DNA of 64,000 nucleotides from the NCBI GenBank assembly GCA_037833965.1, contig AP031353.1, forward strand, positions 20,834,501 to 20,898,500. Direction: 5' to 3'. Each line of letters opens with the position of its first letter. Position 1 is the first letter of the stretch. The DNA is from Marchantia polymorpha subsp. ruderalis. Taxonomy: Eukaryota > Streptophyta > Marchantiopsida > Marchantiales > Marchantiaceae. The notes below the pieces were generated by a model, which saw nothing but the letters and a program-made list of their open reading frames with translations, did not search any database and had not been told where the DNA came from. The position numbers were made by a program, and so were the translations under genes. Shown piece after piece: positions 5,515-57,839 of the stretch.

Positions 5515-5527
5515 GAGGAGGGGGGCA
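5515..5527 (+). other. Polypurine tract of unit 1
   Basis: GAGGAGGGGGGCA lies 25 bp after the pol stop and immediately before TGTGGTACC, the LTR start. It would prime plus-strand synthesis. Its place upstream of the U3 ORF is what puts that ORF inside the LTR. Confidence 0.85.
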
Positions 5528-6773
5528 TGTGGTACCCCACTTTTGGCAATTTTGAGGAAATTAAAACATTTTTGGAAAACTGTACCCTGGCAGCATTGTA
5601 AATAGCCTTCGGTACATCAAAACAGAGTGAATCCGGAAGATCGCGGGGATTCTCGAGGGATCTTGTAGAATCTGGGATTTGGGATGCCGCAGTAAGGACA
5701 GGCACCACCCTCCCTGCGAGCCCTGCAGTTAGGATCTCTACGGCGCGAGGCGCAAAACCCGCCTTCGGAGGTTGCGTCCGCGGCTGTAGGGAAACCCTCC
5801 CTAATTAGGTCAAACCTCGGGCGCCTTGACCAAGTTAGGATTCCGTTGGAAAGAGCTCGACGCACTGATTTCAACGAGCCCAAGAACGCTTGGAACGGAT
5901 GAGGACTTAGGGAGTTATCGCTACTGGAAGAAACGGAGGCGGTCGCCTACGGCGGAAGGAGTTCGCCACCGGCGCGAATTCCGCCTACGCGGAAGGGGGA
6001 ATCAAGTTTTGTCCTATGCGCGGACGAAGGCGTTCGCCTGTGCACAGGCGAAGTAGGGTTAGGGAAGGCGCGAAGTCCGCCTACGCACAGGCGCTTGCCT
6101 GTGCACAGGCACTTCGGCGTCGGCGGAAAATCCGCCTTGGGCCCTAGAAATGCGCCTTGTGAGGTAGAAGTGTACGGCGCCTTCCGCGCCAGCGCAGCGC
6201 CGCGTACGTCGGAAGAGCCGCCAGAGTAATCCAATCGGTACGGACCGTGCGGACGGGAAGGGTGGATGCGCTCTTGGACGGACGGAGTTGCGGCGGCGGA
6301 AGCGCCGACGAAGAGACAAGGAACGGACAGACTGGACGGAGACGGCTGACCACGGTCAACGCCTTCCGCGCCAGCGCAGCGCCGCGGACGGAATTCGCCT
6401 GCGCACAGGCGAACGCCTGTGCACAGGAGGATGTTCAAGTTCCGCGCCGGCGGAGAATCCGCCGAGGCTCCTGCCTGCGCACAGGCAGGAGTTGAACTTT
6501 TGTCCGACATGCGGACACACGCGTCAAGGCAGAGGGGGATTGGCCGAGGGGCGGTACGAACAAGTGTACCGCGCAAGGCGGAAAACTCGCCTTCGGCGCT
6601 ACGCCCCCATGTCCGCAGGGTAATACGCTCGCGGAGTTCAAATCCGCCAATTCGAGCGTGAGAGTTTAATCGACGACGGCGGAGCGTGAAGCCGCGCGTG
6701 AGAGCGAAGACCGTTCCAGCGTACAGCCGGCGCGGCCATCAAGTGAGACGTTCTTCACGACCAAGAGCCGACC
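5528..6773 (+). other. Non-coding 5' part of U3 (LTR1): shared LTR module and palindrome-rich region
   Basis: No gene seen. The first 0.3 kb is AT-richer. About 5848-5910 is a module (TTGGAAAGAGCTCG ... AACGAGCCCAAGAACG ... GGATGAGG) also found in the LTRs of B and of A2. From about 5940 the sequence is GC-rich and full of short palindromes, for example the perfect 20 bp TTCGCCTGTGCACAGGCGAA at 6033-6052, further CCTGTGCACAGG or CCTGCGCACAGG units, and many GCCTTCGGC or GGCGGA/TCCGCC pairs. I see no TATA box just upstream of the U3 ORF. Confidence 0.7.
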
Positions 6774-9700
6774 ATGACCTTCGACCGGGCGGCGGAGAAC
6801 GTCCCATTCTTGAATTCGCGATTCCAATCTCTTGTGCGCGCTGCGCGCATCCATCTGCTGGCTGCGGAACATTCTCGACGTCGTCGCACAGGAGATTTCT
6901 TGTTGATTGAGGGAGAAGTGAGTGCGCGTGATTTGGAATTGAGAGCGATTAGAGTTTGCCGAGAGAGAAAGAAGCGCGGGCAGTGCGGAAGTAGAATGAG
7001 CGGGCGAGCGAACCCCAGGAACGCAATGACGAGACCGAGCAGATTGCGGATGGTGCCACTTCGCCTACCGCAGAACGGGCTGCGCGCTTTTGAGGAGCGC
7101 TTAATAGCAAGAAAGCTCGATTTCTTGCTATGGGGATGGAATTACATCTGTGCGAATATGGTGCGCGAGTGGCTAGAGCCACAGGGACCACCCTCGCGCG
7201 GATTGCGTCCGCATGTTGACCGGTGGACAGTCCAAGATTGGGCGCAGGCGTTGGGAAGATGTGCTGGCATGCCAGGGCATCTCCTTTTCGACAGTGAGAG
7301 CATCAAGGTGACTAAGCAAGAAGAGGCGCAATTTGTGGAGCTGTTCAAGACCGGGAGGTCTACCAAGAATGGGTACAGGACCCGTGATTACAAGGATCGA
7401 TTTCGCCGGACTTTGTCCGCGGCGCTGATGCAATTACTGCAGCCGCACCGCGCCTGCTACATCACATTGTGGCAGGTCTCTTTTGTGGAGTGCGTCATCG
7501 AGGGAACTCCAATTCACTGGGCGAGCATCCTGCACAGGGTGATGCGACAGCACGCGTTTGAGGAGAAGGGGGGAACTCTAAACCATCTTTCTCCTTTCCT
7601 CATCAATTTTTATCGACAGCGGAATTGTTTGACAGCGGCGGAGCTTGAACATTTTCCGCCATTGTCCATCGACCATCCCGGGAAGTATGTGCGGGAGAAC
7701 GAGGTCGATACTGATGCAGAGGAGTCACCGACTTCTACCCCATCAAGACGGAGGGACGAAGGGAGACACACCCCTGCAGCGCGAGTGCCGCGGAAGCGGC
7801 GATGGAGGGAAGAGTCTGAAGAGGAGCAGCATCAAGAACCCTCTGCTCCCATTCGACCGCGGCCGCTGTGCGAGCCATACAGCCGGCCGAAGCAGAAGGC
7901 ACGCAGACTGGTGTTGCCAGCTGACAGTGCAGACACGGCGACAATTGCGACGGAGTTAGGAAGTGCGTCGCCAGAGAGGCATGAGGAAGCGCGGACGACC
8001 GCAGGAGCGACGGGCCACGCTGCAACCTCGACGGGAGAAAGGCCGCCTACGGGCCAAGGGCCTCCGGAGTTACCACGTGCGATGCGGACAGATGTCCCGT
8101 TTGCGCACAGACGAACCTCCGCGGACGGACGAGCCTCCGCGGACCGGCGAACACAAGTGGACGTGGATCTACGCTTACGCGTGGGAAGGAGCAGTCCGCC
8201 TGTGCACAGGCGCTCGCCTGTGCACAGGTCGCCTGTGCACAGGACACCTCCGCACGTGCCGCCTGTGCACAGGCAAGAATCACCCCCGTTCCAACGTAGG
8301 AAGGGGAAGGAGCCGACGGAAGAACCGCCTACGAGACACCGGCCCTCGGGGCCAGACCCTCCGGCGCACCACGCGCCGCAATTCGCGCCTTCGGCGCCAG
8401 GGCCTTCGAGCCGAGGAGATACGAGCAGAGAGCGTGCGGAGGCCGCACCATCGGCGGGAAGTCCGCCGATAGATGCGCCTTCGGCGGTAGGGCCTATAGG
8501 CCAAGGAACATCGGGCGTGCGGCCCCCGGCCATGTCTCCTTCGGCGATGGATGTCCGCGGCGCTACGCCTGCGGCGGACAAGGCGCCGGCAAATGCGCCT
8601 GCGCACGGGCCGGGCACAGCCCCCACGGACCGATCAAGGGAGCAGCAGACGGAGGAGCGGAGTGACTGTCCGCGGGATGAAATCTCGATGCGCGATGCGC
8701 AATCCAACCCCGCGCAGCCACCCTCCGCTCGATCGCCTTCTGCGGCGGACGACGGCGGCAGAGAGGATGCGGTAGACAATCAACAAGCGAGAGACGGGGA
8801 TGCCGCACGGGTACATTCGCCTTCCGCCTTAGACATTTTGGCGACGAGCAGCGAGGCTGCAGCCGTGCCTTCGCAGGCAGCACACGTCGACGACGTGCAG
8901 CCCCACTCGGGGCAGTCGCCGACGCAATCAATGGCGACTGAAATTCTCCACTCGGATGATGACGACGGAGGCTCCACGGAAGAAATGTCAGGAGCAGAAG
9001 ACACCGAGGAGGAGGAGGAGGAAATTGTTGGAGCGCCGGCGGCGGCGCTCTCTGAGCAGGTGATTCCGTTGCTGCGGTACTTGGATCGCAAGGTCGATAA
9101 ATACGCCGACCCACTCCAGCCGGGATCTTACATCGAGTTAGTGCGCAGGCGGACTCGCACTAAAGTCCACACCAGCAAGCTATTAGCTAGAGTGGACCAG
9201 GAGTTGAGGGACTTGAAGGAGAAGCATGCGTGCTTGTGGGGTCAGTACAAGCTTAATCAGAAATTCTACAAGCACTCCGAGAAGATGAAGGATGAAAAAC
9301 TGGGCGAGCTCACCAAGGAGCAGGTGAAGGTCAAGGAAGCACTCATCTCTGAGCAGGCCCAGAATCGGATTTTGTCAGAGGAGCTCGTGCGACAGACGCG
9401 GTTGTTGGAACAATGTCAGCTCGCACGGCAGGCGGATGAAGAATTAATCCGCAGGTTGCAGTCAGAGTGTGGCGAATTGAGAGCGCAACGTGCTGAAGCC
9501 GAATCGCAATTAGTGATACTTGAAGAGGATCGCAGGAAGGAGGCGGATCGCACGAAGGTGGAGACGGCGAGGCGAGTCGCCCACTGTCTCAAGGGCTACG
9601 CCCACTGGGAAGTGAAGGCGCAGGAGAAACTCACACTGCGTGAGTTTGAATTGCGCGCAGCCGGGTTGTTGTCAGGCGACAGTAGGAGTCGGCGGAAGGT

Positions 9701-9911
9701 AGCGAAGAAGCTCGAAGCCTTTCTGTCGAAGGCACAGGATACCATGTCCGCCCTCGAAGGGGAGGTGTCCGCGGCGTTGCAGCGGTTGGAACTGCGCAGT
9801 CGAGCGGAAGATTGGCAGGGTAGAGAGTTAGTGCGCGGCAGTCGGCCGCGCAGGAGACGTAGTACAGGTTCCGCGGAGTGTAGTGTAGCGTGGTTCCGTG
9901 CAGGCGTGTAG
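6774..9911 (+). CDS. LTR (U3)-encoded protein of unknown function, copy in LTR1
   Basis: 1045 codons, wholly inside U3. Not recognised as any named family. Residues about 85-320 form a globular-looking, conserved domain (FLLWGWN, WAQALGRCAG, RTRDYKDRFRR, WQVSFVE, GGTLNHLSP). About 320-720 is a Pro/Arg/Ser-rich low-complexity region with PVHR and PSA repeats that reflect DNA palindromes. About 725-757 is acidic (DDDD, EEEEEE). From about 758 (LSEQVIPLLRYLDRK) to about 1010 is a long Glu/Lys/Gln-rich likely coiled coil (CLKGYAHWEV, LREFELRAAG). The end is basic (RRRRSTGSAECS). No signal peptide or membrane segment is seen, so it is not envelope-like. The start is uncertain: the A2 homologue aligns well only from near the Met of 'RNAMTRP', about codon 85. 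Extra ORFs of Tat-lineage elements lie between integrase and the 3' LTR; here the polypurine tract is upstream, so the ORF is inside the LTR. Confidence 0.8.
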   Translation: MTFDRAAENVPFLNSRFQSLVRAARIHLLAAEHSRRRRTGDFLLIEGEVSARDLELRAIRVCRERKKRGQCGSRMSGRANPRNAMTRPSRLRMVPLRLPQNGLRAFEERLIARKLDFLLWGWNYICANMVREWLEPQGPPSRGLRPHVDRWTVQDWAQALGRCAGMPGHLLFDSESIKVTKQEEAQFVELFKTGRSTKNGYRTRDYKDRFRRTLSAALMQLLQPHRACYITLWQVSFVECVIEGTPIHWASILHRVMRQHAFEEKGGTLNHLSPFLINFYRQRNCLTAAELEHFPPLSIDHPGKYVRENEVDTDAEESPTSTPSRRRDEGRHTPAARVPRKRRWREESEEEQHQEPSAPIRPRPLCEPYSRPKQKARRLVLPADSADTATIATELGSASPERHEEARTTAGATGHAATSTGERPPTGQGPPELPRAMRTDVPFAHRRTSADGRASADRRTQVDVDLRLRVGRSSPPVHRRSPVHRSPVHRTPPHVPPVHRQESPPFQRRKGKEPTEEPPTRHRPSGPDPPAHHAPQFAPSAPGPSSRGDTSRERAEAAPSAGSPPIDAPSAVGPIGQGTSGVRPPAMSPSAMDVRGATPAADKAPANAPAHGPGTAPTDRSREQQTEERSDCPRDEISMRDAQSNPAQPPSARSPSAADDGGREDAVDNQQARDGDAARVHSPSALDILATSSEAAAVPSQAAHVDDVQPHSGQSPTQSMATEILHSDDDDGGSTEEMSGAEDTEEEEEEIVGAPAAALSEQVIPLLRYLDRKVDKYADPLQPGSYIELVRRRTRTKVHTSKLLARVDQELRDLKEKHACLWGQYKLNQKFYKHSEKMKDEKLGELTKEQVKVKEALISEQAQNRILSEELVRQTRLLEQCQLARQADEELIRRLQSECGELRAQRAEAESQLVILEEDRRKEADRTKVETARRVAHCLKGYAHWEVKAQEKLTLREFELRAAGLLSGDSRSRRKVAKKLEAFLSKAQDTMSALEGEVSAALQRLELRSRAEDWQGRELVRGSRPRRRRSTGSAECSVAWFRAGV

Positions 9912-9947
9912 CGTAGTGCAGTGTAGTGTTAGGTAGGACTTAGAAGG

Positions 9948-9956
9948 TATAAAATA
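9948..9956 (+). promoter_or_regulatory. LTR1 TATA box
   Basis: TATAAAATA lies 36 bp after the U3 ORF stop and is conserved in LTR2, LTR3, the solo LTR and, on the minus strand, the A3 LTR. Transcription should start some 25-35 bp downstream, near 9980, which marks the U3/R border. Confidence 0.8.
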
Positions 9957-9979
9957 GTTCCAGGCGTTTTGCCTGGGGT

Positions 9980-10700
9980 TCTTTCCCATCAGAAGTATAG
10001 ATCAGGAACCCATTTCCTTTGCGTGTTTGTGTCCTTGAGTTCTGTCACCACGCACGAGGAGTTACAACTTAGCGTTCCGCATGTTGTAGCTGAAGGCCTT
10101 CGGCCGAATGTTCAGAGCTAGTCCATTGGTTAGAGACTTGAGTAGTTCGGATCTGCACCTGCGGGTGACTGCCGATGCTCAGAGCCAGTGACTAGTTAGA
10201 TACTTGAACAGTTTCGCCCCTACACCTTCGAGTGTTTCTTTCTGATTGTACTCCTTGGGATTTTTCCCCTGAATGCCAAAGTGAAGTTTTGCTACTTCGT
10301 GTAAGCCTTGGTTGTAAATTCAGGTTACGCTGCAGCAGGTGCCTTGAGGGTAACCCCTGTAGTATTTCTGGGAATGACAAGTGCCTGAGAATTCAAACTC
10401 TTCAATAGACTGTTGTTGTGTTACTGGAATGTTTCTCAGTGAGTCCTTCAGTGCGGACCTGTGTTCTCTGCGCGTTTTGTGAGTTGAGAGTGTTGTTCAC
10501 CGCGTATGAGTGACTTCGATCCGAAGTAGGCAGTCCAAACCGGGTTTCCTACACTAGCAGCAAGCTAGTGGAAGTGTTGTAAAAGCCGGGGTTGGAAGTC
10601 ACTGCCCGCAGCTTTGCCGAGTGTGCTTGAGAGAGACTTTCCCCCTGAAATCTTGAAGTAGAGGTCCTAACGGATCTCTGGGTTGTGTTTCTGTAGTTTC

Positions 10701-10737
<37 letters not shown>

Positions 10738-10931
10738 GCTGCACTGTGCGACCTCCGAGTGCGCTCCGAGTGGACACTTGCAGTATTTCTGGGAGTGACA
10801 GTCGCCTGAGAATTCAAACTCCTCAATAGTCTGTTAAACGTGACACTTTGTACCCTGTGTGTTCCTCTGTCCCTGTGGGTTCGACCTTTCTACCACTATA
10901 TTGCAGTTTTAGCCTTTAGTGGGTTATTACA
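9980..10931 (+). other. R-U5 region of LTR1 with an internal direct repeat
   Basis: About 0.95 kb with no ORF of note (approximate left edge set by the TATA box). Two related blocks, about 10324-10415 and 10733-10837, share GTTACGCTGCA at the start, then 'AGTATTTCTGGGA' and 'GAGAATTCAAACT', and end in AATAG(A/T)CTGTT. The hairpin-like GAAGGCCTTCGGCC is at about 10093. A GT microsatellite lies between the blocks. Confidence 0.7.
10703..10734 (+). repeat. (GT)16 microsatellite in U5 of LTR1
   Basis: Sixteen GT units. LTR2 has 14 (21903-21930) and LTR3 13 (43206-43231). It accounts for the length difference between LTR1 and LTR2. Confidence 0.95.
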
Positions 10932-10953: not shown

Positions 10954-10971
10954 TGGCGCCGCTGCCGGGGA
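10954..10971 (+). other. Primer-binding site of unit 2 (tRNA-Asp type)
   Basis: TGGCGCCGCTGCCGGGGA differs at one position from the plant tRNA-Asp complement typical of Athila/Tat elements (TGGCGCCGTTGCCGGGGA). It starts 22 bp after the LTR end, a longer gap than usual. Confidence 0.8.
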
Positions 10972-11017: not shown

Positions 11018-13849
11018 ATGTCGACTGGGGCTAGCGGGAGCAACCTAAGTGCTAGAGCTGTCCGCAAGTTCCGACGAGATTCAGAGAAGGCCGTGGAAGA
11101 GACACGGCGTCAAAACAAGAAAACACCAAAAAGAGTACCTAAGCCTAGTTCGGCCGACATCCTTGGGGAACCTACCCCCGGCGACTCGGAACCAAACTTG
11201 GTGCTTACAGTTCTACTAGATATTCCTTGCACGGACCCGCCTAGTGAAGTAGAACCGACCGCCCGAGAACCGTCGACAGACACACCGATGGCGGACGGAC
11301 AAGCCAATGTGCGGCTACCTCAGCCGATTACTAAACATTCCTACCCGAAGTACAAAGGGAGTGGGGATGACGACGATGCAGATTCATACATCAAGTTGTT
11401 CGAATCGGTGTCTATTGCCAATCGCGAGATCGCAGACGACGACCGATTAAGGATCTTTCCAAGCCTTCTGCGGAAGAAAGCGAGGAGTTGGTACAATCAC
11501 GAGAGCATCGATCCGACTGGGTTGACAACATGGGCCCAGCTGAAGGAGAAGTTCCTTCGCCGCTTCCGCGAGCTCGGCTACGACAGCCGGGTTTTGACAA
11601 AGTTACGTAATTTGCAGCGAGAGAAGAAGGAGAGTCTGCGTGACTACACTGAGAGATTTCTGGACCTCCTTGACAGAATACCGAAAACAGGACCAGGGTC
11701 CCCTTTCTCGGTACAACAAGCTGTGGATTGGTACGTGACCGGTTTAACTCGGGAGATGGAGACTTTTTGCCGACGCAGTAAGTGCGACACTATTGAGGAT
11801 GTGATTGCATCGGCAGAAGCCTTCGAAACTTCCACTCTCAACCGAAGAGGGAGAGAGAGACGGGAGTCGAAGGAGCGAAAACCGAAGGGAGGGCGAAGAC
11901 GACGTAGAGGTACAACTCCGTCATCGGAGGAATCGTCTTCGGACGAGAACCGTTCCTCATCCGAAGAAGAGGAAACCTCATCGTCGGAGGAGGAGAAGAA
12001 GAGGAAGAAGCATGGGTCAGCGAAGAAAAAGGGCATCCGACGAGTGACTACGGACAGAGCGCCGGGAGATATAGCTTCGAAGATGGAGACCCTTGTGAAA
12101 GACTTCGCCGATCTCAAGGTTCAAGTGGTAGGCGGGCATGATCGCCGAAAATCACCCGGGAGAGTGCGAGCGAACTTATGGTGTACTACGTGCGGGGCGG
12201 TGGGACATGCAAACACCGAGTGCCTTACCACCCGTCCGTCATATCCAGTCAACGCAGTAGAGTGGGCACAACCGTACTATGGAGAGCACCCTCAGTACTA
12301 TGGAGAGGCTAGCGAAGAGACAGCCTACGCCGTCCAGTCGGTTCCTACCCCTCCTGCAGTTTCAGCAATGCAAGTCCCACGATATATTCCGGTGGATCGG
12401 GCCACTACAGTACCCGTGAGGCGGAGAGCACCTCCAGGGACGTTTGACCCACCGCCACCGCGAGCTTGTTATAATTGCGGGGAAGTTGGGCACTTCTCAC
12501 CGCAGTGTCCCCATCCAAAAAGGCGAAACGATTATGCTCCGACATGTAGTAATTGCAAGAAGATCGGGCATACTGCGCCAGAGTGTGATCAGCCGCCAGT
12601 CCCTCGGCCAGCGGTACGATTTGTGAACACTCCTGCCAAGGAGGACGTCCAAGTTAACCAGGTCGAAGTAGGTTCAGACGGGGATGACGAAGACGAAGAA
12701 TGGCCGGCTGAAGAGGTTATGTGCGCACGGGTCGAAACTCGTAGTTCCAAGAAATCGAAGGAGCAAGAGCGTGACACTCGCAAGCACGAACGAAGAACCG
12801 ACGACCGGACGGGAAAAGGGAAGGAGAAGGCATCCAGCAAGTCCGACTTGCGATCTGCTCGGAAGACTTCGGCTACGAGAGAGGCACCAGCAGTGCGCCC
12901 CCAGACAGCAGTTGAGGACGAGCCAGTGCGCCTACTGAAACGGGACTATGCTCCGGATATCCGCAACGAGGTAGCCAACCTGTTGAAGGAAGCGATCCGC
13001 ACGCAAAAGGACCCACCGCGGCCAGACTTGACATCCTCCCTTGGGGCGAAGTTGGCAGCCACCGTGGAACCTCGCAGAGCGTCGCCGACCCCGGCGACCC
13101 AACGCGCCCACTATGACTTGGTCGAAGATCTAGGGAGTCGAAAAGTGAACATCACGTTCAAGCAGCTCTTGGAGGACAATAAGACGTATCGGAGAATGTT
13201 GATGCTTTCGCTACGGCATCCGCGGAAGCCGCGCGCATCCACATCCTCTCAAGTATATCAAGTGGAGAGCGAAGACCAAGGTCCACCCGAGATCGATGTG
13301 GAAATAGCAGGATGTTGTGTACGTAGGGTGCCAATCGACTCTGGATCAGGAGTCAACATAATGACGGAGGATACAGCGAGAGCCTTGGGGTTCAGTCAAT
13401 ACGAACCCTCGAAGCGTGTGTTGAGATTAGCGGATCAGACACGGAGAATGCCTGCAGGTATGCTGCGCAATGTCAAGACAATCATCGGGGGTGCGGACTT
13501 TCGGTTGACGTATATCATCCTTCAACCGATGATGAAGCAGGGCTATGACGTTCTGCTCGGGCGACCATGGCTATATGGCGCACAAGTCAGATGTGATTGG
13601 CGAAGGCATCGCCTTAAGTTTCCCCATCCTTCGGAACCGACCAAAACCATTACGGTGCCCTGGAATAGGGTCAGACACGAAGGAGAGACCCCATCGACAA
13701 GTGCAGGTTACACATCGGGAGAGGACAGTGAGTCGACCGCGCGATCGGATTCCAGTGGTACTGAATCCGATTATTTCGTGGGTTTCGTTGCCTGCTGTTC
13801 GGTGGGAGAAGAAGAAGAGCCGGAAGCTATTCAACCGGAAGACGAATAG
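11018..13849 (+). CDS. gag-pro: Gag-protease polyprotein of element A, unit 2 (complete)
   Basis: Complete 943-codon ORF starting at ATG 11018 (MSTGASGSN), 86 bp after LTR1. Gag domain about residues 90-290, basic/Ser-Glu region about 290-370, zinc knuckles starting at C389, C484 and C510, protease catalytic D774 in DSGSG, and LLGRPWLYG near 855. It ends at TAG 13847-13849, in frame with pol, so suppression would give a fusion of about 1890 residues. Sequence differences from unit 1 are very few; one is a silent C to T at 12913. All motifs are intact, so the protein could be functional. Confidence 0.95.
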   Translation: MSTGASGSNLSARAVRKFRRDSEKAVEETRRQNKKTPKRVPKPSSADILGEPTPGDSEPNLVLTVLLDIPCTDPPSEVEPTAREPSTDTPMADGQANVRLPQPITKHSYPKYKGSGDDDDADSYIKLFESVSIANREIADDDRLRIFPSLLRKKARSWYNHESIDPTGLTTWAQLKEKFLRRFRELGYDSRVLTKLRNLQREKKESLRDYTERFLDLLDRIPKTGPGSPFSVQQAVDWYVTGLTREMETFCRRSKCDTIEDVIASAEAFETSTLNRRGRERRESKERKPKGGRRRRRGTTPSSEESSSDENRSSSEEEETSSSEEEKKRKKHGSAKKKGIRRVTTDRAPGDIASKMETLVKDFADLKVQVVGGHDRRKSPGRVRANLWCTTCGAVGHANTECLTTRPSYPVNAVEWAQPYYGEHPQYYGEASEETAYAVQSVPTPPAVSAMQVPRYIPVDRATTVPVRRRAPPGTFDPPPPRACYNCGEVGHFSPQCPHPKRRNDYAPTCSNCKKIGHTAPECDQPPVPRPAVRFVNTPAKEDVQVNQVEVGSDGDDEDEEWPAEEVMCARVETRSSKKSKEQERDTRKHERRTDDRTGKGKEKASSKSDLRSARKTSATREAPAVRPQTAVEDEPVRLLKRDYAPDIRNEVANLLKEAIRTQKDPPRPDLTSSLGAKLAATVEPRRASPTPATQRAHYDLVEDLGSRKVNITFKQLLEDNKTYRRMLMLSLRHPRKPRASTSSQVYQVESEDQGPPEIDVEIAGCCVRRVPIDSGSGVNIMTEDTARALGFSQYEPSKRVLRLADQTRRMPAGMLRNVKTIIGGADFRLTYIILQPMMKQGYDVLLGRPWLYGAQVRCDWRRHRLKFPHPSEPTKTITVPWNRVRHEGETPSTSAGYTSGEDSESTARSDSSGTESDYFVGFVACCSVGEEEEPEAIQPEDE

Positions 13850-13855
13850 CAATTA
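13847..13855 (+). promoter_or_regulatory. Predicted readthrough signal UAG-CAA-UUA (unit 2)
   Basis: Same in-frame TAG CAA TTA context as in unit 1, between intact gag-pro and pol. Confidence 0.8.
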
Positions 13856-16690
13856 ACTGTGGGACTGGGAAGGAGTGAGACGAGTCACACCGAGGGCATT
13901 GTCGACCCTAGTGACTGTCACGAAGTACAACTTAGTCCCGGCAAGCGCTTGAAGGTATCAAGCGCAGTGAGAGGAGACGAGCTAAGGAAAGTACAGGCAT
14001 TCCTTAGCCATTATGTCGACGTCTTCGCCTGGAAAATCGAAGACATGAAGGGGATACCTGCACGGTATGGGGAACACCGTATCGATTTACTGGACGACTC
14101 AGTACCCATACGACAGCGCCAGTATCGCCTCAACCCAAAATACTCCTTGCTAGTTAAAGAGGAGATAGATAAGTACTTGAGCGCTGGAATTATTTACCCT
14201 GTGCTCAGCAGCGAGTGGGTGTCGCCGATTGTTATCGTACCCAAGAAGTTGACGGGTAAGATACGAGTGTGTCAGGATTTCCGGAAGTTGAATGCAGCAA
14301 CACGCAAGGACCATCACCCGTTACCATTCACGGATGCCATTCTAGACCATGTCGCAGGACATGAATGTTATAGCTTCCTGGATGGGTTCTCAGGTTACAA
14401 TCAGGTGTCTATCCGTGAACAGGACAAGGATAAAACTACGTTCACAACCGACTGGGGAACTTACGCATACCACAAGATGCCCTTCGGTCTGTGCAACGCG
14501 CCTGCCACCTTTCAACGGATGATGACCAATATCTTTCAGGAACAACTGAGGAAGTTCCTGGAAATATTCATAGATGACTTCTGTGTCTTTGGGAAGCGGT
14601 CTGAACACCTAAGTCACTTGAAGCAGACCTTCGATAAATGTAGAGAGAGCAGTTTATCACTGCATCCCGAGAAGTGCTTTTTCTTTATGACTAGTGGGAT
14701 CTTGTTGGGTCATCGGGTCTCGGCAGACGGCATTGCGGTGGACATCGAGAAGGTCAAGGTTATACTCGAGCTTGAGCCACCCACGAATCTAAGAGAGCTG
14801 CGAGCATTCCTGGGTCATGTGGGCTACTACCGAAGATTCATACACCTGTATGCAATACTGGCGGCGGACCTGACCAAGTTGTTGAAGAAGGACGAGCCTT
14901 ATGCTTGGGGTGCGAACCAGCAGTCAGCATTTGAGACTCTTAAAGCGAAACTCACGACTGCTCCCGTACTAAGGAGTCCAGACTGGAATCGACCATTCCA
15001 TGTTTACGTTGACACCTCGGCATTCGCCATCGGTGTAGTACTGAGTCAAAAGGATGACAACAAAAAGGACTACCCGATCTACTTCGCGAGCCGACAGCTG
15101 TCTCTAGCAGAGCGGAAGTACACCACGACGGAGAGAGAAGCGTTGGGGATGGTGTACTCCTGTAAAAAGTTCCGTCACTACCTAATCTGCTACGAGTTTG
15201 TGTTCCATGTGGACCACTACGCATTGCAACACCTAGTCAAGAAAGCCGACCTATCCGGTCGGATCGCCAGGTGGGTGTTGTTACTACAAGAGTTCACCTA
15301 CACAGTCCAGACCAGGAAAGGGGTGCACCACGAAAATGCGGATTACTTGTCCCGAATATGGACCCAGCCGACAGAGGAGGAATTGGTGGACGATTTTCCA
15401 GATGAAGAGTTATTTCAGTTGTCTGCAGGACATGAGTCCCGCTATGCCGACCTGTATCGATATCTGCTAACCCTCCAGTGTCCCGAAGGCATGGATTTGG
15501 AACAGCGAACTGTCTTTATTCATAAGGCAGGCCCGTACCAACTCCAGCAGGGGGTTTTGTTCAAGAAGATGGCAGATGAGCGCTTATGCAGATGCCTGGA
15601 GGAATCAGAGGTACCAAGAATAGTGAGTGCGATGCATACAGAGGAGGCGGGTGGACACTATGCCACCAGGAACACGGTCACAAAGATCCTAAATGCGGGG
15701 TATTGGTGGCCGACCATGTTTGAGGATGTTCTCGATTACATTCGCAAGTGCGACAGTTGCCAGAGGACGGGGAGACCGACGCCTACAACACGCTGGCCCC
15801 TGACTCCCATCATGCCTCTAGCACCTTTCGAAAAGTGGGGTATTGACTTTGTAGGGCCGATACAACCAGTGACTAGAAGTACACGAAGGCGCTACATTCT
15901 GGTAGCAACGGACTACGCCACCAAAATGGTAGAGGCCAGGGCCACCAGAAGGGATGATGCTGCCACAGTGGCAGCATTCTTGTTTGAGTCGATCATCACA
16001 CGCTACGGATGTCCCTTAGAGCTAGTCAGCGACCGGGGCACGCATTTTCTGAATCAGATCATCGAAGACCTGACACGGTATTTCCACATCAAGCACCGGA
16101 AGACTACTCCATACAATCCCAAGGCAAATGGACTGACGGAGAAGTCCAATGGTCTGCTGTGTAAAATACTACTCAAGGTCACGGTGAATCACGCTCACGA
16201 CTGGGATACGAAGCTAGCAGCCGCTCTATGGGCGTACCGGACAGCTGAGAAGATTACGACCAAACAGACACCATACTTTCTGGTGTATGGGCAACACCCG
16301 ATCCTCCCGATCGAATTTGAAGTACCCACCCAACGAACGTTGGATTTGCAGAGGATGGGCGCAGAGGAGAGTCAGCTCTACAGGTTACAGGAGGTCACGC
16401 TGCTGGATGAGAGGAGACGAGACGCCGAAGATCGCACCAGGAAAATCCAGCTCCGCCGAAAGGAGAGATACGATAAAAAGATCAAACCGGTACTACTGCA
16501 GGCGGGTGATTTGGCATTGCTCTACGACAGCAGGCATGCCAGATTCCCAGGCAAACTGCACCTAAGGTGGATGGGACCTTACAGGGTTGTCGAAGTTTTC
16601 CCGAATGGATCCATCCAACTTGCGGACCTGGCCGGCGATTTGTTAGGCACCCGAGTGAACGGGTGGCGGTTGAAGAAATACCACATGTGA
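13850..16690 (+). CDS. pol: Pol of element A, unit 2: reverse transcriptase, RNase H, integrase
   Basis: 943 codons from the formal GTG at 13859, with the same protein sequence as unit 1: FIDD reverse transcriptase, RNase H with the D-E-D set, HHCC plus D-D-35-E integrase and GPY-like C-terminus without chromodomain. It is in frame with gag-pro across TAG 13847-13849. No inactivating change is seen, so with flanking LTR1 and LTR2 this is a structurally complete, potentially autonomous unit. Confidence 0.94.
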   Translation, partial: QLTVGLGRSETSHTEGIVDPSDCHEVQLSPGKRLKVSSAVRGDELRKVQAFLSHYVDVFAWKIEDMKGIPARYGEHRIDLLDDSVPIRQRQYRLNPKYSLLVKEEIDKYLSAGIIYPVLSSEWVSPIVIVPKKLTGKIRVCQDFRKLNAATRKDHHPLPFTDAILDHVAGHECYSFLDGFSGYNQVSIREQDKDKTTFTTDWGTYAYHKMPFGLCNAPATFQRMMTNIFQEQLRKFLEIFIDDFCVFGKRSEHLSHLKQTFDKCRESSLSLHPEKCFFFMTSGILLGHRVSADGIAVDIEKVKVILELEPPTNLRELRAFLGHVGYYRRFIHLYAILAADLTKLLKKDEPYAWGANQQSAFETLKAKLTTAPVLRSPDWNRPFHVYVDTSAFAIGVVLSQKDDNKKDYPIYFASRQLSLAERKYTTTEREALGMVYSCKKFRHYLICYEFVFHVDHYALQHLVKKADLSGRIARWVLLLQEFTYTVQTRKGVHHENADYLSRIWTQPTEEELVDDFPDEELFQLSAGHESRYADLYRYLLTLQCPEGMDLEQRTVFIHKAGPYQLQQGVLFKKMADERLCRCLEESEVPRIVSAMHTEEAGGHYATRNTVTKILNAGYWWPTMFEDVLDYIRKCDSCQRTGRPTPTTRWPLTPIMPLAPFEKWGIDFVGPIQPVTRSTRRRYILVATDYATKMVEARATRRDDAATVAAFLFESIITRYGCPLELVSDRGTHFLNQIIEDLTRYFHIKHRKTTPYNPKANGLTEKSNGLLCKILLKVTVNHAHDWDTKLAAALWAYRTAEKITTKQTPYFLVYGQHPILPIEFEVPTQRTLDLQRMGAEESQLYRLQEVTLLDERRRDAEDRTRKIQLRRKERYDKKIKPVLLQAGDLALLYDSRHARFPGKLHLRWMGPYRVVEVFPNGSIQLADLAGDLLGTRVNGWRLKKYHM

Positions 16691-16727: not shown

Positions 16728-17973
16728 TGTGGTACCCCACTTTTGGCAATTTTGAGGAAATTAAAACATTTTTGGAAAACTGTACCCTGGCAGCATTGTA
16801 AATAGCCTTCGGTACATCAAAACAGAGTGAATCCGGAAGATCGCGGGGATTCTCGAGGGATCTTGTAGAATCTGGGATTTGGGATGCCGCAGTAAGGACA
16901 GGCACCACCCTCCCTGCGAGCCCTGCAGTTAGGATCTCTACGGCGCGAGGCGCAAAACCCGCCTTCGGAGGTTGCGTCCGCGGCTGTAGGGAAACCCTCC
17001 CTAATTAGGTCAAACCTCGGGCGCCTTGACCAAGTTAGGATTCCGTTGGAAAGAGCTCGACGCACTGATTTCAACGAGCCCAAGAACGCTTGGAACGGAT
17101 GAGGACTTAGGGAGTTATCGCTACTGGAAGAAACGGAGGCGGTCGCCTACGGCGGAAGGAGTTCGCCACCGGCGCGAATTCCGCCTACGCGGAAGGGGGA
17201 ATCAAGTTTTGTCCTATGCGCGGACGAAGGCGTTCGCCTGTGCACAGGCGAAGTAGGGTTAGGGAAGGCGCGAAGTCCGCCTACGCACAGGCGCTTGCCT
17301 GTGCACAGGCACTTCGGCGTCGGCGGAAAATCCGCCTTGGGCCCTAGAAATGCGCCTTGTGAGGTAGAAGTGTACGGCGCCTTCCGCGCCAGCGCAGCGC
17401 CGCGTACGTCGGAAGAGCCGCCAGAGTAATCCAATCGGTACGGACCGTGCGGACGGGAAGGGTGGATGCGCTCTTGGACGGACGGAGTTGCGGCGGCGGA
17501 AGCGCCGACGAAGAGACAAGGAACGGACAGACTGGACGGAGACGGCTGACCACGGTCAACGCCTTCCGCGCCAGCGCAGCGCCGCGGACGGAATTCGCCT
17601 GCGCACAGGCGAACGCCTGTGCACAGGAGGATGTTCAAGTTCCGCGCCGGCGGAGAATCCGCCGAGGCTCCTGCCTGCGCACAGGCAGGAGTTGAACTTT
17701 TGTCCGACATGCGGACACACGCGTCAAGGCAGAGGGGGATTGGCCGAGGGGCGGTACGAACAAGTGTACCGCGCAAGGCGGAAAACTCGCCTTCGGCGCT
17801 ACGCCCCCATGTCCGCAGGGTAATACGCTCGCGGAGTTCAAATCCGCCAATTCGAGCGTGAGAGTTTAATCGACGACGGCGGAGCGTGAAGCCGCGCGTG
17901 AGAGCGAAGACCGTTCCAGCGTACAGCCGGCGCGGCCATCAAGTGAGACGTTCTTCACGACCAAGAGCCGACC

Positions 17974-20900
17974 ATGACCTTCGACCGGGCGGCGGAGAAC
18001 GTCCCATTCTTGAATTCGCGATTCCAATCTCTTGTGCGCGCTGCGCGCATCCATCTGCTGGCTGCGGAACATTCTCGACGTCGTCGCACAGGAGATTTCT
18101 TGTTGATTGAGGGAGAAGTGAGTGCGCGTGATTTGGAATTGAGAGCGATTAGAGTTTGCCGAGAGAGAAAGAAGCGCGGGCAGTGCGGAAGTAGAATGAG
18201 CGGGCGAGCGAACCCCAGGAACGCAATGACGAGACCGAGCAGATTGCGGATGGTGCCACTTCGCCTACCGCAGAACGGGCTGCGCGCTTTTGAGGAGCGC
18301 TTAATAGCAAGAAAGCTCGATTTCTTGCTATGGGGATGGAATTACATCTGTGCGAATATGGTGCGCGAGTGGCTAGAGCCACAGGGACCACCCTCGCGCG
18401 GATTGCGTCCGCATGTTGACCGGTGGACAGTCCAAGATTGGGCGCAGGCGTTGGGAAGATGTGCTGGCATGCCAGGGCATCTCCTTTTCGACAGTGAGAG
18501 CATCAAGGTGACTAAGCAAGAAGAGGCGCAATTTGTGGAGCTGTTCAAGACCGGGAGGTCTACCAAGAATGGGTACAGGACCCGTGATTACAAGGATCGA
18601 TTTCGCCGGACTTTGTCCGCGGCGCTGATGCAATTACTGCAGCCGCACCGCGCCTGCTACATCACATTGTGGCAGGTCTCTTTTGTGGAGTGCGTCATCG
18701 AGGGAACTCCAATTCACTGGGCGAGCATCCTGCACAGGGTGATGCGACAGCACGCGTTTGAGGAGAAGGGGGGAACTCTAAACCATCTTTCTCCTTTCCT
18801 CATCAATTTTTATCGACAGCGGAATTGTTTGACAGCGGCGGAGCTTGAACATTTTCCGCCATTGTCCATCGACCATCCCGGGAAGTATGTGCGGGAGAAC
18901 GAGGTCGATACTGATGCAGAGGAGTCACCGACTTCTACCCCATCAAGACGGAGGGACGAAGGGAGACACACCCCTGCAGCGCGAGTGCCGCGGAAGCGGC
19001 GATGGAGGGAAGAGTCTGAAGAGGAGCAGCATCAAGAACCCTCTGCTCCCATTCGACCGCGGCCGCTGTGCGAGCCATACAGCCGGCCGAAGCAGAAGGC
19101 ACGCAGACTGGTGTTGCCAGCTGACAGTGCAGACACGGCGACAATTGCGACGGAGTTAGGAAGTGCGTCGCCAGAGAGGCATGAGGAAGCGCGGACGACC
19201 GCAGGAGCGACGGGCCACGCTGCAACCTCGACGGGAGAAAGGCCGCCTACGGGCCAAGGGCCTCCGGAGTTACCACGTGCGATGCGGACAGATGTCCCGT
19301 TTGCGCACAGACGAACCTCCGCGGACGGACGAGCCTCCGCGGACCGGCGAACACAAGTGGACGTGGATCTACGCTTACGCGTGGGAAGGAGCAGTCCGCC
19401 TGTGCACAGGCGCTCGCCTGTGCACAGGTCGCCTGTGCACAGGACACCTCCGCACGTGCCGCCTGTGCACAGGCAAGAATCACCCCCGTTCCAACGTAGG
19501 AAGGGGAAGGAGCCGACGGAAGAACCGCCTACGAGACACCGGCCCTCGGGGCCAGACCCTCCGGCGCACCACGCGCCGCAATTCGCGCCTTCGGCGCCAG
19601 GGCCTTCGAGCCGAGGAGATACGAGCAGAGAGCGTGCGGAGGCCGCACCATCGGCGGGAAGTCCGCCGATAGATGCGCCTTCGGCGGTAGGGCCTATAGG
19701 CCAAGGAACATCGGGCGTGCGGCCCCCGGCCATGTCTCCTTCGGCGATGGATGTCCGCGGCGCTACGCCTGCGGCGGACAAGGCGCCGGCAAATGCGCCT
19801 GCGCACGGGCCGGGCACAGCCCCCACGGACCGATCAAGGGAGCAGCAGACGGAGGAGCGGAGTGACTGTCCGCGGGATGAAATCTCGATGCGCGATGCGC
19901 AATCCAACCCCGCGCAGCCACCCTCCGCTCGATCGCCTTCTGCGGCGGACGACGGCGGCAGAGAGGATGCGGTAGACAATCAACAAGCGAGAGACGGGGA
20001 TGCCGCACGGGTACATTCGCCTTCCGCCTTAGACATTTTGGCGACGAGCAGCGAGGCTGCAGCCGTGCCTTCGCAGGCAGCACACGTCGACGACGTGCAG
20101 CCCCACTCGGGGCAGTCGCCGACGCAATCAATGGCGACTGAAATTCTCCACTCGGATGATGACGACGGAGGCTCCACGGAAGAAATGTCAGGAGCAGAAG
20201 ACACCGAGGAGGAGGAGGAGGAAATTGTTGGAGCGCCGGCGGCGGCGCTCTCTGAGCAGGTGATTCCGTTGCTGCGGTACTTGGATCGCAAGGTCGATAA
20301 ATACGCCGACCCACTCCAGCCGGGATCTTACATCGAGTTAGTGCGCAGGCGGACTCGCACTAAAGTCCACACCAGCAAGCTATTAGCTAGAGTGGACCAG
20401 GAGTTGAGGGACTTGAAGGAGAAGCATGCGTGCTTGTGGGGTCAGTACAAGCTTAATCAGAAATTCTACAAGCACTCCGAGAAGATGAAGGATGAAAAAC
20501 TGGGCGAGCTCACCAAGGAGCAGGTGAAGGTCAAGGAAGCACTCATCTCTGAGCAGGCCCAGAATCGGATTTTGTCAGAGGAGCTCGTGCGACAGACGCG
20601 GTTGTTGGAACAATGTCAGCTCGCACGGCAGGCGGATGAAGAATTAATCCGCAGGTTGCAGTCAGAGTGTGGCGAATTGAGAGCGCAACGTGCTGAAGCC
20701 GAATCGCAATTAGTGATACTTGAAGAGGATCGCAGGAAGGAGGCGGATCGCACGAAGGTGGAGACGGCGAGGCGAGTCGCCCACTGTCTCAAGGGCTACG
20801 CCCACTGGGAAGTGAAGGCGCAGGAGAAACTCACACTGCGTGAGTTTGAATTGCGCGCAGCCGGGTTGTTGTCAGGCGACAGTAGGAGTCGGCGGAAGGT

Positions 20901-21111
20901 AGCGAAGAAGCTCGAAGCCTTTCTGTCGAAGGCACAGGATACCATGTCCGCCCTCGAAGGGGAGGTGTCCGCGGCGTTGCAGCGGTTGGAACTGCGCAGT
21001 CGAGCGGAAGATTGGCAGGGTAGAGAGTTAGTGCGCGGCAGTCGGCCGCGCAGGAGACGTAGTACAGGTTCCGCGGAGTGTAGTGTAGCGTGGTTCCGTG
21101 CAGGCGTGTAG
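17974..21111 (+). CDS. LTR (U3)-encoded protein of unknown function, copy in LTR2
   Basis: 1045 codons with the same protein sequence as the LTR1 copy: conserved N-terminal domain, Pro/Arg-rich centre with PVHR and PSA repeats, acidic patch, long coiled coil, basic C-terminus. The stop is 36 bp before the LTR2 TATA box, so the ORF lies in U3. As part of a full-length transcript from LTR1 it would be the last ORF, after pol; how it is translated there (splicing, reinitiation or own promoter) is not visible. Confidence 0.8.
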   Translation: MTFDRAAENVPFLNSRFQSLVRAARIHLLAAEHSRRRRTGDFLLIEGEVSARDLELRAIRVCRERKKRGQCGSRMSGRANPRNAMTRPSRLRMVPLRLPQNGLRAFEERLIARKLDFLLWGWNYICANMVREWLEPQGPPSRGLRPHVDRWTVQDWAQALGRCAGMPGHLLFDSESIKVTKQEEAQFVELFKTGRSTKNGYRTRDYKDRFRRTLSAALMQLLQPHRACYITLWQVSFVECVIEGTPIHWASILHRVMRQHAFEEKGGTLNHLSPFLINFYRQRNCLTAAELEHFPPLSIDHPGKYVRENEVDTDAEESPTSTPSRRRDEGRHTPAARVPRKRRWREESEEEQHQEPSAPIRPRPLCEPYSRPKQKARRLVLPADSADTATIATELGSASPERHEEARTTAGATGHAATSTGERPPTGQGPPELPRAMRTDVPFAHRRTSADGRASADRRTQVDVDLRLRVGRSSPPVHRRSPVHRSPVHRTPPHVPPVHRQESPPFQRRKGKEPTEEPPTRHRPSGPDPPAHHAPQFAPSAPGPSSRGDTSRERAEAAPSAGSPPIDAPSAVGPIGQGTSGVRPPAMSPSAMDVRGATPAADKAPANAPAHGPGTAPTDRSREQQTEERSDCPRDEISMRDAQSNPAQPPSARSPSAADDGGREDAVDNQQARDGDAARVHSPSALDILATSSEAAAVPSQAAHVDDVQPHSGQSPTQSMATEILHSDDDDGGSTEEMSGAEDTEEEEEEIVGAPAAALSEQVIPLLRYLDRKVDKYADPLQPGSYIELVRRRTRTKVHTSKLLARVDQELRDLKEKHACLWGQYKLNQKFYKHSEKMKDEKLGELTKEQVKVKEALISEQAQNRILSEELVRQTRLLEQCQLARQADEELIRRLQSECGELRAQRAEAESQLVILEEDRRKEADRTKVETARRVAHCLKGYAHWEVKAQEKLTLREFELRAAGLLSGDSRSRRKVAKKLEAFLSKAQDTMSALEGEVSAALQRLELRSRAEDWQGRELVRGSRPRRRRSTGSAECSVAWFRAGV

Positions 21112-21147
21112 CGTAGTGCAGTGTAGTGTTAGGTAGGACTTAGAAGG

Positions 21148-21156
21148 TATAAAATA
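21148..21156 (+). promoter_or_regulatory. LTR2 TATA box
   Basis: TATAAAATA at the same LTR position as 9948 in LTR1. Confidence 0.8.
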
Positions 21157-21902
21157 GTTCCAGGCGTTTTGCCTGGGGTTCTTTCCCATCAGAAGTATAG
21201 ATCAGGAACCCATTTCCTTTGCGTGTTTGTGTCCTTGAGTTCTGTCACCATGCACGAGGAGTTACAACTTAGCGTTCCGCATGTTGTAGCTGAAGGCCTT
21301 CGGCCGAATGTTCAGAGCTAGTCCATTGGTTAGAGACTTGAGTAGTTCGGATCTGCACCTGCGGGTGACTGCCGATGCTCAGAGCCAGTGACTAGTTAGA
21401 TACTTGAACAGTTTCGCCCCTACACCTTCGAGTGTTTCTTTCTGATTGTACTCCTTGGGATTTTTCCCCTGAATGCCAAAGTGAAGTTTTGCTACTTCGT
21501 GTAAGCCTTGGTTGTAAATTCAGGTTACGCTGCAGCAGGTGCCTTGAGGGTAACCCCTGTAGTATTTCTGGGAATGACAAGTGCCTGAGAATTCAAACTC
21601 TTCAATAGACTGTTGTTGTGTTACTGGAATGTTTCTCAGTGAGTCCTTCAGTGCGGACCTGTGTTCTCTGCGCGTTTTGTGAGTTGAGAGTGTTGTTCAC
21701 CGCGTATGAGTGACTTCGATCCGAAGTAGGCAGTCCAAACCGGGTTTCCTACACTAGCAGCAAGCTAGTGGAAGTGTTGTAAAAGCCGGGGTTGGAAGTC
21801 ACTGCCCGCAGCTTTGCCGAGTGTGCTTGAGAGAGACTTTCCCCCTGAAATCTTGAAGTAGAGGTCCTAACGGATCTCTGGGTTGTGTTTCTGTAGTTTC
21901 AG

Positions 21903-21933
<31 letters not shown>

Positions 21934-22149
21934 GCTGCACTGTGCGACCTCCGAGTGCGCTCCGAGTGGACACTTGCAGTATTTCTGGGAGTGACAGTCG
22001 CCTGAGAATTCAAACTCCTCAATAGTCTGTTAAACGTGACACTTTGTACCCTGTGTGTTCCTCTGTCCCTGTGGGTTCGACCTTTCTACCACTATATTGC
22101 AGTTTTAGCCTTTAGTGGGTTATTACATAAGAAGCCGACAACTTCTTTT

Positions 22150-27923: not shown

Positions 27924-28276
27924 TGTGGTACCCCACTTTTGGCAATTTTGAGGAAATTAAAACATTTTTGGAAAACTGTACCCTGGCAGCATTGTAAATA
28001 GCCTTCGGTACATCAAAACAGAGTGAATCCGGAAGATCGCGGGGATTCTCGAGGGATCTTGTAGAATCTGGGATTTGGGATGCCGCAGTAAGGACAGGCA
28101 CCACCCTCCCTGCGAGCCCTGCAGTTAGGATCTCTACGGCGCGAGGCGCAAAACCCGCCTTCGGAGGTTGCGTCCGCGGCTGTAGGGAAACCCTCCCTAA
28201 TTAGGTCAAACCTCGGGCGCCTTGACCAAGTTAGGATTCCGTTGGAAAGAGCTCGACGCACTGATTTCAACGAGCC
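27924..28276 (+). repeat. LTR3 of element A, 5' part (353 bp, before the element B insertion)
   Basis: Same sequence as the start of LTR1. It ends in '...TTTCAACGAGCC', where the LTR1 equivalent (5880) continues with CAAGAACG; that continuation is found at 38384 after element B. Holds only the U3 start and half of the shared module; no gene. Confidence 0.93.
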
Positions 28277-28314
28277 AAACCTTCCCACCCTTCAGCGTTT
28301 GTAGTCCGGGTGGG

Positions 28315-36397: not shown

Positions 36398-36410
36398 TTA
36401 CAAGATCAGG

Positions 36411-38385: not shown

Positions 38386-39276
38386 AGAACGCTTGGAACG
38401 GATGAGGACTTAGGGAGTTATCGCTACTGGAAGAAACGGAGGCGGTCGCCTACGGCGGAAGGAGTTCGCCACCGGCGCGAATTCCGCCTACGCGGAAGGG
38501 GGAATCAAGTTTTGTTCTATGCGCGGACGAAGGCGTTCGCCTGTGCACAGGCGAAGTAGGGTTAGGGAAGGCGCGAAGTCCGCCTACGCACAGGCGCTTG
38601 CCTGTGCACAGGCACTTCGGCGTCGGCGGAAAATCCGCCTTGGGCCCTAGAAATGCGCCTTGTGAGGTAGAAGTGTACGGCGCCTTCCGCGCCAGCGCAG
38701 CGCCGCGTACGTCGGAAGAGCCGCCAGAGTAATCCAATCGGTACGGACCGTGCGGACGGGAAGGGTGGATGCGCTCTTGGACGGACGGAGTTGCGGCGGC
38801 GGAAGCGCCGACGAAGAGACAAGGAACGGACAGACTGGACGGAGACGGCTGACCACGGTCAACGCCTTCCGCGCCAGCGCAGCGCCGCGGACGGAATTCG
38901 CCTGCGCACAGGCGAACGCCTGTGCACAGGAGGATGTTCAAGTTCCGCGCCGGCGGAGAATCCGCCGAGGCTCCTGCCTGCGCACAGGCAGGAGTTGAAC
39001 TTTTGTCCGACATGCGGACACACGCGTCAAGGCAGAGGGGGATTGGCCGAGGGGCGGTACGAACAAGTGTACCGCGCAAGGCGGAAAACTCGCCTTCGGC
39101 GCTACGCCCCCATGTCCGCAGGGTAATACGCTCGCGGAGTTCAAATCCGCCAATTCGAGCGTGAGAGTTTAATCGACGACGGCGGAGCGTGAAGCCGCGC
39201 GTGAGAGCGAAGACCGTTCCAGCGTACAGCCGGCGCGGCCATCAAGTGAGACGTTCTTCACGACCAAGAGCCGACC

Positions 39277-42414: not shown

Positions 42415-42450
42415 CGTAGTGCAGTGTAGTGTTAGGTAGGACTTAGAAGG

Positions 42451-42459
42451 TATAAAATA
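42451..42459 (+). promoter_or_regulatory. LTR3 TATA box
   Basis: TATAAAATA at the same LTR position as in LTR1. Transcription from it would run into the A4 LTR remnant and A4. Confidence 0.75.
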
Positions 42460-57788: not shown

Positions 57789-57839
57789 CGTAGTGCAGTG
57801 TAGCGTAGTGCAGTGTAGTGCTAGGTAGGACTTAGAAGG

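What the first reader, a model, noticed from the sequence alone, without database searches (positions are those of the whole stretch)
5528..10931. A gene inside the LTR: 1045-codon ORF wholly in U3 of a 5.4 kb LTR
Seen: the polypurine tract (5515-5527) lies directly after pol, and the LTR it starts contains an intact ORF before the TATA box. The LTR ends are confirmed by a solo copy with 5 bp duplications. Known: plant Tat-lineage elements carry extra ORFs between integrase and the 3' LTR, and mouse mammary tumour virus has its sag gene in U3. Inference: here the extra gene has become part of the LTR, so every LTR and solo LTR spreads a gene copy. I know of no plant element described this way.
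Basis: partly seen in the sequence, partly recalled or inferred. Interest (0 to 1): 0.92.

Follow-up and report, generated by a model that had tools for sequence, protein, structure and literature searches.

The report
Liverwort retrotransposon gene inside its LTR
A very abundant jumping gene of a liverwort (Marchantia) carries a large, selection-maintained protein gene inside its end repeats, so its copies, even leftover single repeats, usually bring along a copy of that gene; this arrangement is known from a mouse virus but I found no plant example in print.

Summary
A Ty3/gypsy element of Marchantia polymorpha or a very close relative has 5.4-kb LTRs (5528-10931) whose U3 carries a long intact ORF upstream of the only TATA-like box. 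Purine tract, tRNA-Asp PBS, solo LTRs with 5-bp duplications (11 of 30 genomic loci, plus the window's) and paired LTRs fix the ends. LTR-start tags number 3154, ORF tags 2335. The gene is real: dN/dS 0.21 (median of 404 pairs), and three divergent copies (45-55% protein identity) are also solo LTRs with 5-bp duplications and the ORF inside. Correction: the protein most likely starts at 7026 (961 aa); the first 84 codons evolve near neutrally, and a Met at 7026's place is kept in all three divergent copies. Not every LTR carries it: an ORF-less LTR variant of about 3.15 kb (324 tag sites) keeps the LTR ends. The protein (poorly modelled N-domain, Pro-rich linker, coiled coil, no membrane span) has no recurring Pfam match, no PDB match and, at the sensitivity used, no named relative outside Marchantia. 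Best reading: an accessory protein made from the 3' LTR on a spliced or internal transcript, as in MMTV sag. Expression and function are inferred. New variant of a known kind.

The parts
5515..5527 (+). polypurine tract (GAGGAGGGGGG, 5515-5525) plus CA, directly before the LTR; it starts 24 nt after the pol stop (5490)
   Evidence: sequence; 1218 PPT+LTR-start joints genome-wide
5528..10931 (+). LTR of 5404 bp (TGTGG...TTACA) containing the ORF
5528..7025 (+). U3 upstream of the conserved start codon; no TATA-like box; eight ATGs before 6774 that open frames of 3 to 76 codons; five copies (up to 1 mismatch) of the palindrome CCTGTGCACAGG
6774..7025 (+). 84 in-frame codons upstream of the conserved Met; near-neutral variant ratio (0.86), probably not part of the protein
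7026..9911 (+). LTR-encoded gene, most likely a protein of 961 aa (1045 aa if read from 6774)
   Evidence: Met at this place also in three divergent copies and as first residue of six gene models; dN/dS 0.21
7026..7703 (+). conserved N-terminal domain (residues 85-310 of the 1045), variant ratio 0.118; only helices in a poor model
7704..9005 (+). Pro/Ser/Ala-rich linker, variant ratio 0.313; its PVHR repeats are encoded by the 12-nt palindrome also found in U3
9006..9821 (+). coiled-coil region, one helix of 165 residues in the model (mean pLDDT 77), variant ratio 0.229
9948..9954 (+). only TATA-like box of the LTR, 36 nt after the ORF stop; start of R is expected just downstream (inferred)
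10954..10971 (+). primer binding site, complement of the tRNA-Asp(GTC) 3' end
11018..13849 (+). gag-protease frame, 943 codons, ending in TAG followed by CAA TTA
13850..16690 (+). RT, RNase H, integrase in the same frame after one conserved TAG
16728..22127 (+). second LTR of the array with the same ORF (17974-21111)
27924..28279 (+). third LTR, first part, before the nested element
38384..43428 (+). third LTR, rest, with the ORF (39277-42414)
53390..58818 (+). solo LTR flanked by TACTA/TACTA, ORF 54618-57788 intact (1056 aa from the first ATG)

Best explanation
Shown: this is a Ty3/gypsy retrotransposon whose second-strand primer site (PPT) lies between pol and a third gene, so that the third gene is part of U3 and of both LTRs; the gene has been kept by purifying selection. 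Most simply inferred from three divergent copies with the same layout: it has been in the LTR at least since the split of Marchantia lineages whose copies now share 45-55% of the protein sequence. Inferred: the protein is an accessory factor of the element's own life cycle. The copy that works is the one in the 3' LTR, downstream of pol on the element's RNA and read from a spliced or internally started transcript (as MMTV reads sag), because the 5' copy and solo copies lie upstream of the only TATA-like box. Because both new U3s are copied from the 3' end of the RNA (established reverse-transcription logic), selection on the 3' copy alone keeps both LTR copies intact. The long coiled coil suggests a self-assembling scaffold or binding protein; no membrane span was seen, so it is not env-like.
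For: LTR ends by TSD, PPT, PBS. Three of three divergent places fetched are solo LTRs of 4898, 4570 and 4050 bp with 5-bp duplications GCACT, CTATG, ATGAT and the ORF inside. dN/dS median 0.207, range 0.108-0.396, over 404 of 435 pairs. Non-synonymous to synonymous variants per site by region: 0.118 N-domain, 0.313 linker, 0.229 coil, against 0.858 in the 84 codons before the conserved Met. 39 of 44 scored genome copies lack stops (chosen by score, so biased to intact); 4 of 5 sites taken from the LTR-start list carry an open frame of 1029 codons or more. One TATA-like box only, after the ORF. Highest 19-residue hydropathy 1.14. C-terminal rod.
Against: No RNA data could be searched, so transcription, splicing and translation are untested. 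An ORF-less LTR variant has multiplied (324 tag sites), so the gene is not needed in cis by all relatives. The N-domain model is unusable (mean pLDDT 41), so the molecular function rests on weak ground. Parts of gag-PR and pol are more constrained than the LTR ORF (0.14 and 0.07, window copies). No homologue outside Marchantia was found, which is odd for a gene needed for retrotransposition, since Riccia sorocarpa holds pol relatives at up to 76% identity.
Confidence: 0.7

Rival explanations
1. A regulatory or anti-silencing protein: made in trans from any expressed LTR, it acts on LTR DNA (for example at U3 repeats) to keep the family transcribed, which would explain why it sits in the LTR and why ORF-less elements can ride along.
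For: A 12-nt palindrome occurs 5 times in U3 before the ORF and 4 times in the coding linker of each main-family LTR (37 in the window, 0.26 expected); the ORF-less LTR keeps 3 copies of its core and has multiplied; basic patches in the protein.
Against: The palindrome core is absent from the U3 of the three divergent copies; 4 of 9 copies are inside the coding linker; no DNA-binding domain recognised.
Confidence: 0.2
2. A post-pol extra ORF of the ordinary plant (Ogre/Tat/Athila) kind that became LTR only because the element began to use an upstream PPT; the LTR location has no consequence for function.
For: Same place on the RNA (after pol, sense) as the extra ORFs of many plant elements (PMC7264820, PMC6317226, passages or part read).
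Against: No Pfam match for the ORF or the trimmed proteins; among 30 relatives 16 families turned up in one member each (best E 0.00019, an extensin-like low-complexity match) and none of the families named for plant extra ORFs did; no relic PPT between ORF and TATA-like box. This is a rival about origin and does not conflict with the anatomy.
Confidence: 0.35
3. A chance long ORF, or a decaying one, with no function.
For: U3 and ORF are GC-rich (0.59-0.60) and hold long open frames on the other strand too (209, 315 and 183 aa); the first 84 codons do look like such an extension.
Against: dN/dS 0.21, variable sites by codon position 69/71/188; start codon and domains kept in divergent copies.
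Confidence: 0.02
4. Artefact of assembly or of a local array: repeats wrongly taken for LTRs.
For: The window is part of a tandem array with an 11,200-bp period.
Against: Copies on all nine contigs (together), solo LTRs with their own 5-bp duplications, pairs with PBS and PPT.
Confidence: 0.01

Closest known systems
Mouse mammary tumour virus sag in the 3' LTR (PMC3026287, passages read)
   Same: An accessory gene lies within the LTR and lengthens it; in MMTV it is read from the 3' LTR by spliced transcripts, as is inferred here
   Different: MMTV LTR about 1.3 kb, superantigen of an animal retrovirus; here a 5.4-kb LTR, a 961-aa protein with a coiled coil, a plant Ty3/gypsy element and thousands of LTRs; no sequence comparison with sag was made
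Plant Ty3/gypsy elements with extra ORFs (Athila, Grande, RIRE2, Retand; PMC7264820 part 1 of 3 read, PMC6317226 passages read)
   Same: Extra ORF after pol in an element without chromodomain; tRNA-Asp is among the primers used by non-chromoviruses
   Different: There the ORF is in the internal region, most often between pol and the 3' LTR; here it is inside the LTR; no match to the Pfam families named for those ORFs
[not shown]
   Same: Marchantia Ty3/gypsy elements lacking the additional RNase H, as here
Rice Retrosat2, RIRE3, RIRE8 with ORF0 and LTRs of about 3 kb (PMC3485330, passages read)
   Same: Very long LTRs and an extra ORF of unknown function
   Different: ORF0 lies upstream of the gag-pol ORF; the passages seen do not place it in the LTR

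Membership tests
LTR retrotransposon, Ty3/gypsy | order gag-PR-RT-RNase H-integrase between LTRs, PBS, PPT, TSD | tested here: met
   Pfam order; PBS, PPT and 5-bp TSD
Chromovirus | chromodomain; tRNA-Met primer in most | tested here: not met
   no chromodomain hit at E up to 1; primer is tRNA-Asp
Tat (aRH-bearing) | additional RNase H domain | tested here: not met
   only the RT-linked RNase H models match
[not shown]
   no labelled reference sequences were at hand
Athila | RT phylogeny; internal extra ORF after pol, in some the Athila ORF-1 domain | tested here: inconclusive
   no room for an internal extra ORF (PPT starts 24 nt after pol); Athila ORF-1 not among the Pfam matches; no RT tree made
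LTR-encoded accessory gene (MMTV sag type arrangement) | ORF wholly within U3, present in both LTRs and kept in solo LTRs | tested here: met
LTR-encoded accessory gene (MMTV sag type arrangement) | expressed from the 3' LTR by a spliced or internal transcript | not testable with these tools
   no RNA data
Env-like third ORF | membrane-spanning segment | tested here: not met
   highest 19-residue hydropathy 1.14 in the 961-aa protein

The most novel reading that the evidence does not exclude
A lineage of plant retrotransposons has for a long time carried a trans-acting gene inside its LTR: solo LTRs become free-standing copies of that gene, and an ORF-less LTR class lives off the protein made by others, so that the LTR itself is the unit on which element-versus-element selection acts; the protein works on the LTR, for instance against silencing.
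Probability: 0.18. Interest if true: 0.9.

Novelty: new variant of a known kind. Interest (0 to 1): 0.76.

Why it matters
LTRs are mostly treated as regulatory, non-coding ends. Here thousands of LTRs, solo ones included, spread a gene under selection, in a model land plant with good genetics. It gives a place to ask what plant extra ORFs do, how a PPT shift could enlarge an LTR, and whether solo LTRs can act as genes. It also warns that repeat annotation with limits on LTR length, or gene annotation that takes such hits for host genes (AXG93 models), may misread these loci.

Tried and rejected
Pfam scans: nothing for the ORF at E up to 1 or for the trimmed proteins at E up to 10; among 30 relatives 16 families matched in one member each, best E 0.00019 (Extensin_1), taken as chance or low complexity. 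Profile search of PDB sequences: none. Search of the genome with the plant transposon family PF20167: none, but the control genomes rang nowhere either, so uninformative. Structure model of residues 80-330: mean pLDDT 41, not used for a fold search; the coiled-coil model was not searched because a long helix matches too much. A tRNA pattern with a wrong T-loop gave 0 and was corrected. A bacterial promoter scan of U3 is not informative for a plant. Literature: searches list no plant LTR-borne gene as far as titles and abstract starts tell; listed papers that hold the words 'within the LTR' (e.g. PMC12371157, PMC9122828) were not opened. The library holds open-licence papers only, so this does not prove absence in print.

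Rejected: chance ORF, assembly artefact, second PPT after the ORF, env-like protein (see rivals and membership).

Rows dropped before counts: L020 and L029 (early stops) from the 30-ORF selection tests; L013 and L022 (one LTR end not found) from the 28; 31 of 435 pairs with dS of 0.02 or less. Near-identical array copies were kept, and the window copy enters twice (as itself and as L011), so pairs are not independent. In L040 the 5-bp duplication followed by TG occurs at two places; the one at the LTR start known from homology was taken. In L041 the LTR start rests on TGTGG plus the duplication, with little further homology.

Full report
What was claimed. A 1045-codon ORF lies wholly in U3 of a 5.4-kb LTR, so the LTR itself carries a gene.

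Anatomy. The direct repeat 5528-10931 (5404 bp) recurs at 16728-22127 and, split by a nested element, at 27924-28279 plus 38384-43428, with 99.7-99.9% identity; a 95.9% copy lies alone at 53390-58818. Between repeats lie 5796 bp with a gag-protease frame and an RT-RNase H-integrase frame. The ORF 6774-9911 is inside the repeat. A purine tract ends just before 5528. The PBS at 10954-10971 is the complement of the 3' end of tRNA-Asp(GTC): the matching T-arm occurs exactly at 31 places, and the two fetched are tRNA-Asp genes by ARAGORN. The solo copy is flanked by TACTA on both sides.

Host. One relative found by protein search, a Marchantia polymorpha subsp. ruderalis protein (P0003), is present in this genome at 100% identity over residues 340-638 and 93% over 71-314, so the genome is M. 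polymorpha or a very close relative. Nine contigs, one of 5.6 Mb and eight of 24-33 Mb, fit eight autosomes and a sex chromosome (the karyotype is recalled).

Genome-wide test. Tags with up to 3 mismatches: LTR start 3154, PPT plus LTR start 1218, LTR end plus leader 1376, ORF 2335; the pattern read backwards gave 0 each time. Of 30 loci brought in by the ORF, 28 showed both LTR ends 5331-5575 bp apart: 11 solo with perfect duplications, 6 5' LTRs, 7 3' LTRs, 4 inside arrays. L027/L028 are a pair 11.2 kb apart flanked by CTGCT with 0 differences in 5391 aligned LTR bases; L015/L017 are flanked by CTTAA with 5 in 5389. These loci were found through the ORF, so I also sampled from the ends. Of 12 of the 100 listed LTR-leader joints, 10 LTRs run back into the 3' part of the ORF (about its last 110 codons were fetched), one (L047) is broken inside the LTR, and one (L052) lacks the ORF. 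Of 5 of the 100 listed LTR starts, 4 hold an open frame of 1029-1052 codons, 93-97% identical to the window's protein; one (L058) is interrupted. The listed places match the tag exactly, so they lean to young copies.

ORF-less variant. L052 belongs to an LTR of about 3.15 kb with a TGTGG start (76% identical to the window's first 100 LTR bases) and the usual end; its sequence rejoins the family 2 bases after the ORF stop. Its joint occurs at 324 places. So the gene has been lost or replaced in one successful sub-group; this is not a second PPT after the ORF, since the start corresponds to 5528.

Age of the arrangement. A relative's protein used as query gave 166 matches from 69 scored candidates. 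Three of the divergent places were fetched: L039, L040 and L041, 45-55% identical to the window protein in the aligned parts. Each is a solo LTR (4898, 4570, 4050 bp) with a 5-bp duplication and the ORF inside. These copies are old: L040 and L041 have stops in the frame, and L039 has one stop upstream of a 738-codon frame. Most simply, the gene was already in the LTR in their common ancestor; a tree was not made.

Selection. Over 30 full ORFs, 404 of 435 pairs have dS above 0.02; median dN/dS is 0.207 (0.108-0.396); variable sites by codon position are 69, 71 and 188. Window copy against window solo copy: 49 synonymous and 33 non-synonymous differences, 0.21. Non-synonymous to synonymous variants per site by region: codons 1-84, 0.858 (6 synonymous, 16 non-synonymous variants); N-domain 0.118; linker 0.313; coil 0.229. 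Yardsticks from parts of the window copies: gag-PR 0.14, pol 0.072. Copies were chosen by score, which favours intact ones; this cannot easily explain the contrast between codons 1-84 and the rest.

Start codon. A Met seven residues before the RMVPL motif (or its variants) is present in the main copy and in all three divergent copies, and is the first residue of six of the eight gene models, among P0006-P0029, in which the following motif was found. L041 has an in-frame stop after only 12 open codons upstream of it. With the near-neutral first 84 codons this puts the start at 7026 and the protein at 961 aa.

The protein. No Pfam match for the protein itself and only single, non-recurring matches among 30 relatives; no PDB sequence relative; 28 relatives by profile search, 26 of them named, all M. 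polymorpha. The search needs shared 5-residue words, so distant relatives could be missed. Pol has relatives at up to 76% identity in Riccia sorocarpa, yet no Riccia protein matched the LTR protein. The C-terminal 301 residues model as a rod with a helix of 165 residues; the N-domain model failed. No membrane span.

How it likely works. By established reverse-transcription logic both new U3s come from the 3' end of the RNA, so the ORF in the 3' LTR is the template for both. On the RNA the ORF is the third cistron, after pol. The only TATA-like box lies after the ORF, and eight ATGs lie in the 1.2 kb before 6774, so translation probably needs splicing or an internal start. MMTV reads sag from the 3' LTR by spliced transcripts (PMC3026287, passages). 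Solo copies have no TATA-like box upstream and would need a neighbour's promoter; in tandem arrays the previous unit could supply one. These steps are inferred.

Noticed in passing
13847-13855, also 2647, 25043, 47105: Gag-protease and pol are one frame split by TAG followed by CAA TTA, the tobacco-mosaic-virus type of readthrough context (motif recalled), at all four junctions in the window. The TAG is present in all 100 listed of 617 genome sites searched with that codon left free.
   Followed up: partly
window 1-28279, continuing upstream to at least G000:C4:20817630: Tandem array LTR-internal-LTR-internal-LTR with an 11,200-bp period; neighbouring LTRs L009-L012 differ by 0-1 bases; similar arrays recur, e.g. 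C2:31345293-31390029 with an 11,184-bp period.
   Followed up: partly
5528-10931 and the other LTR copies: The palindrome CCTGTGCACAGG (up to 1 mismatch) occurs 37 times in the window (0.26 expected), only in the four long LTR copies; in the ORF linker the same 12 bases encode the protein repeat PVHR.
   Followed up: partly
about 28272-38385: Nested LTR element on the minus strand with 1949-bp repeats (99.9%), a single 2039-codon gag-pol frame and pol 47% identical to the host element's; its polyprotein has no match to the LTR ORF. Its duplication was not settled.
   Followed up: partly
L052/L054 (G000:C3:18012056 to about 18015204): ORF-less LTR variant of about 3.15 kb, 324 joint sites genome-wide; candidate for dependence on the protein in trans.
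   Followed up: partly
G000:C6:7583693-7586050: Public Marchantia gene models (AXG93 series) annotate relatives of this LTR ORF as 'hypothetical proteins'; the one checked, P0003, sits in a solo LTR with an ATGAT duplication.
   Followed up: partly
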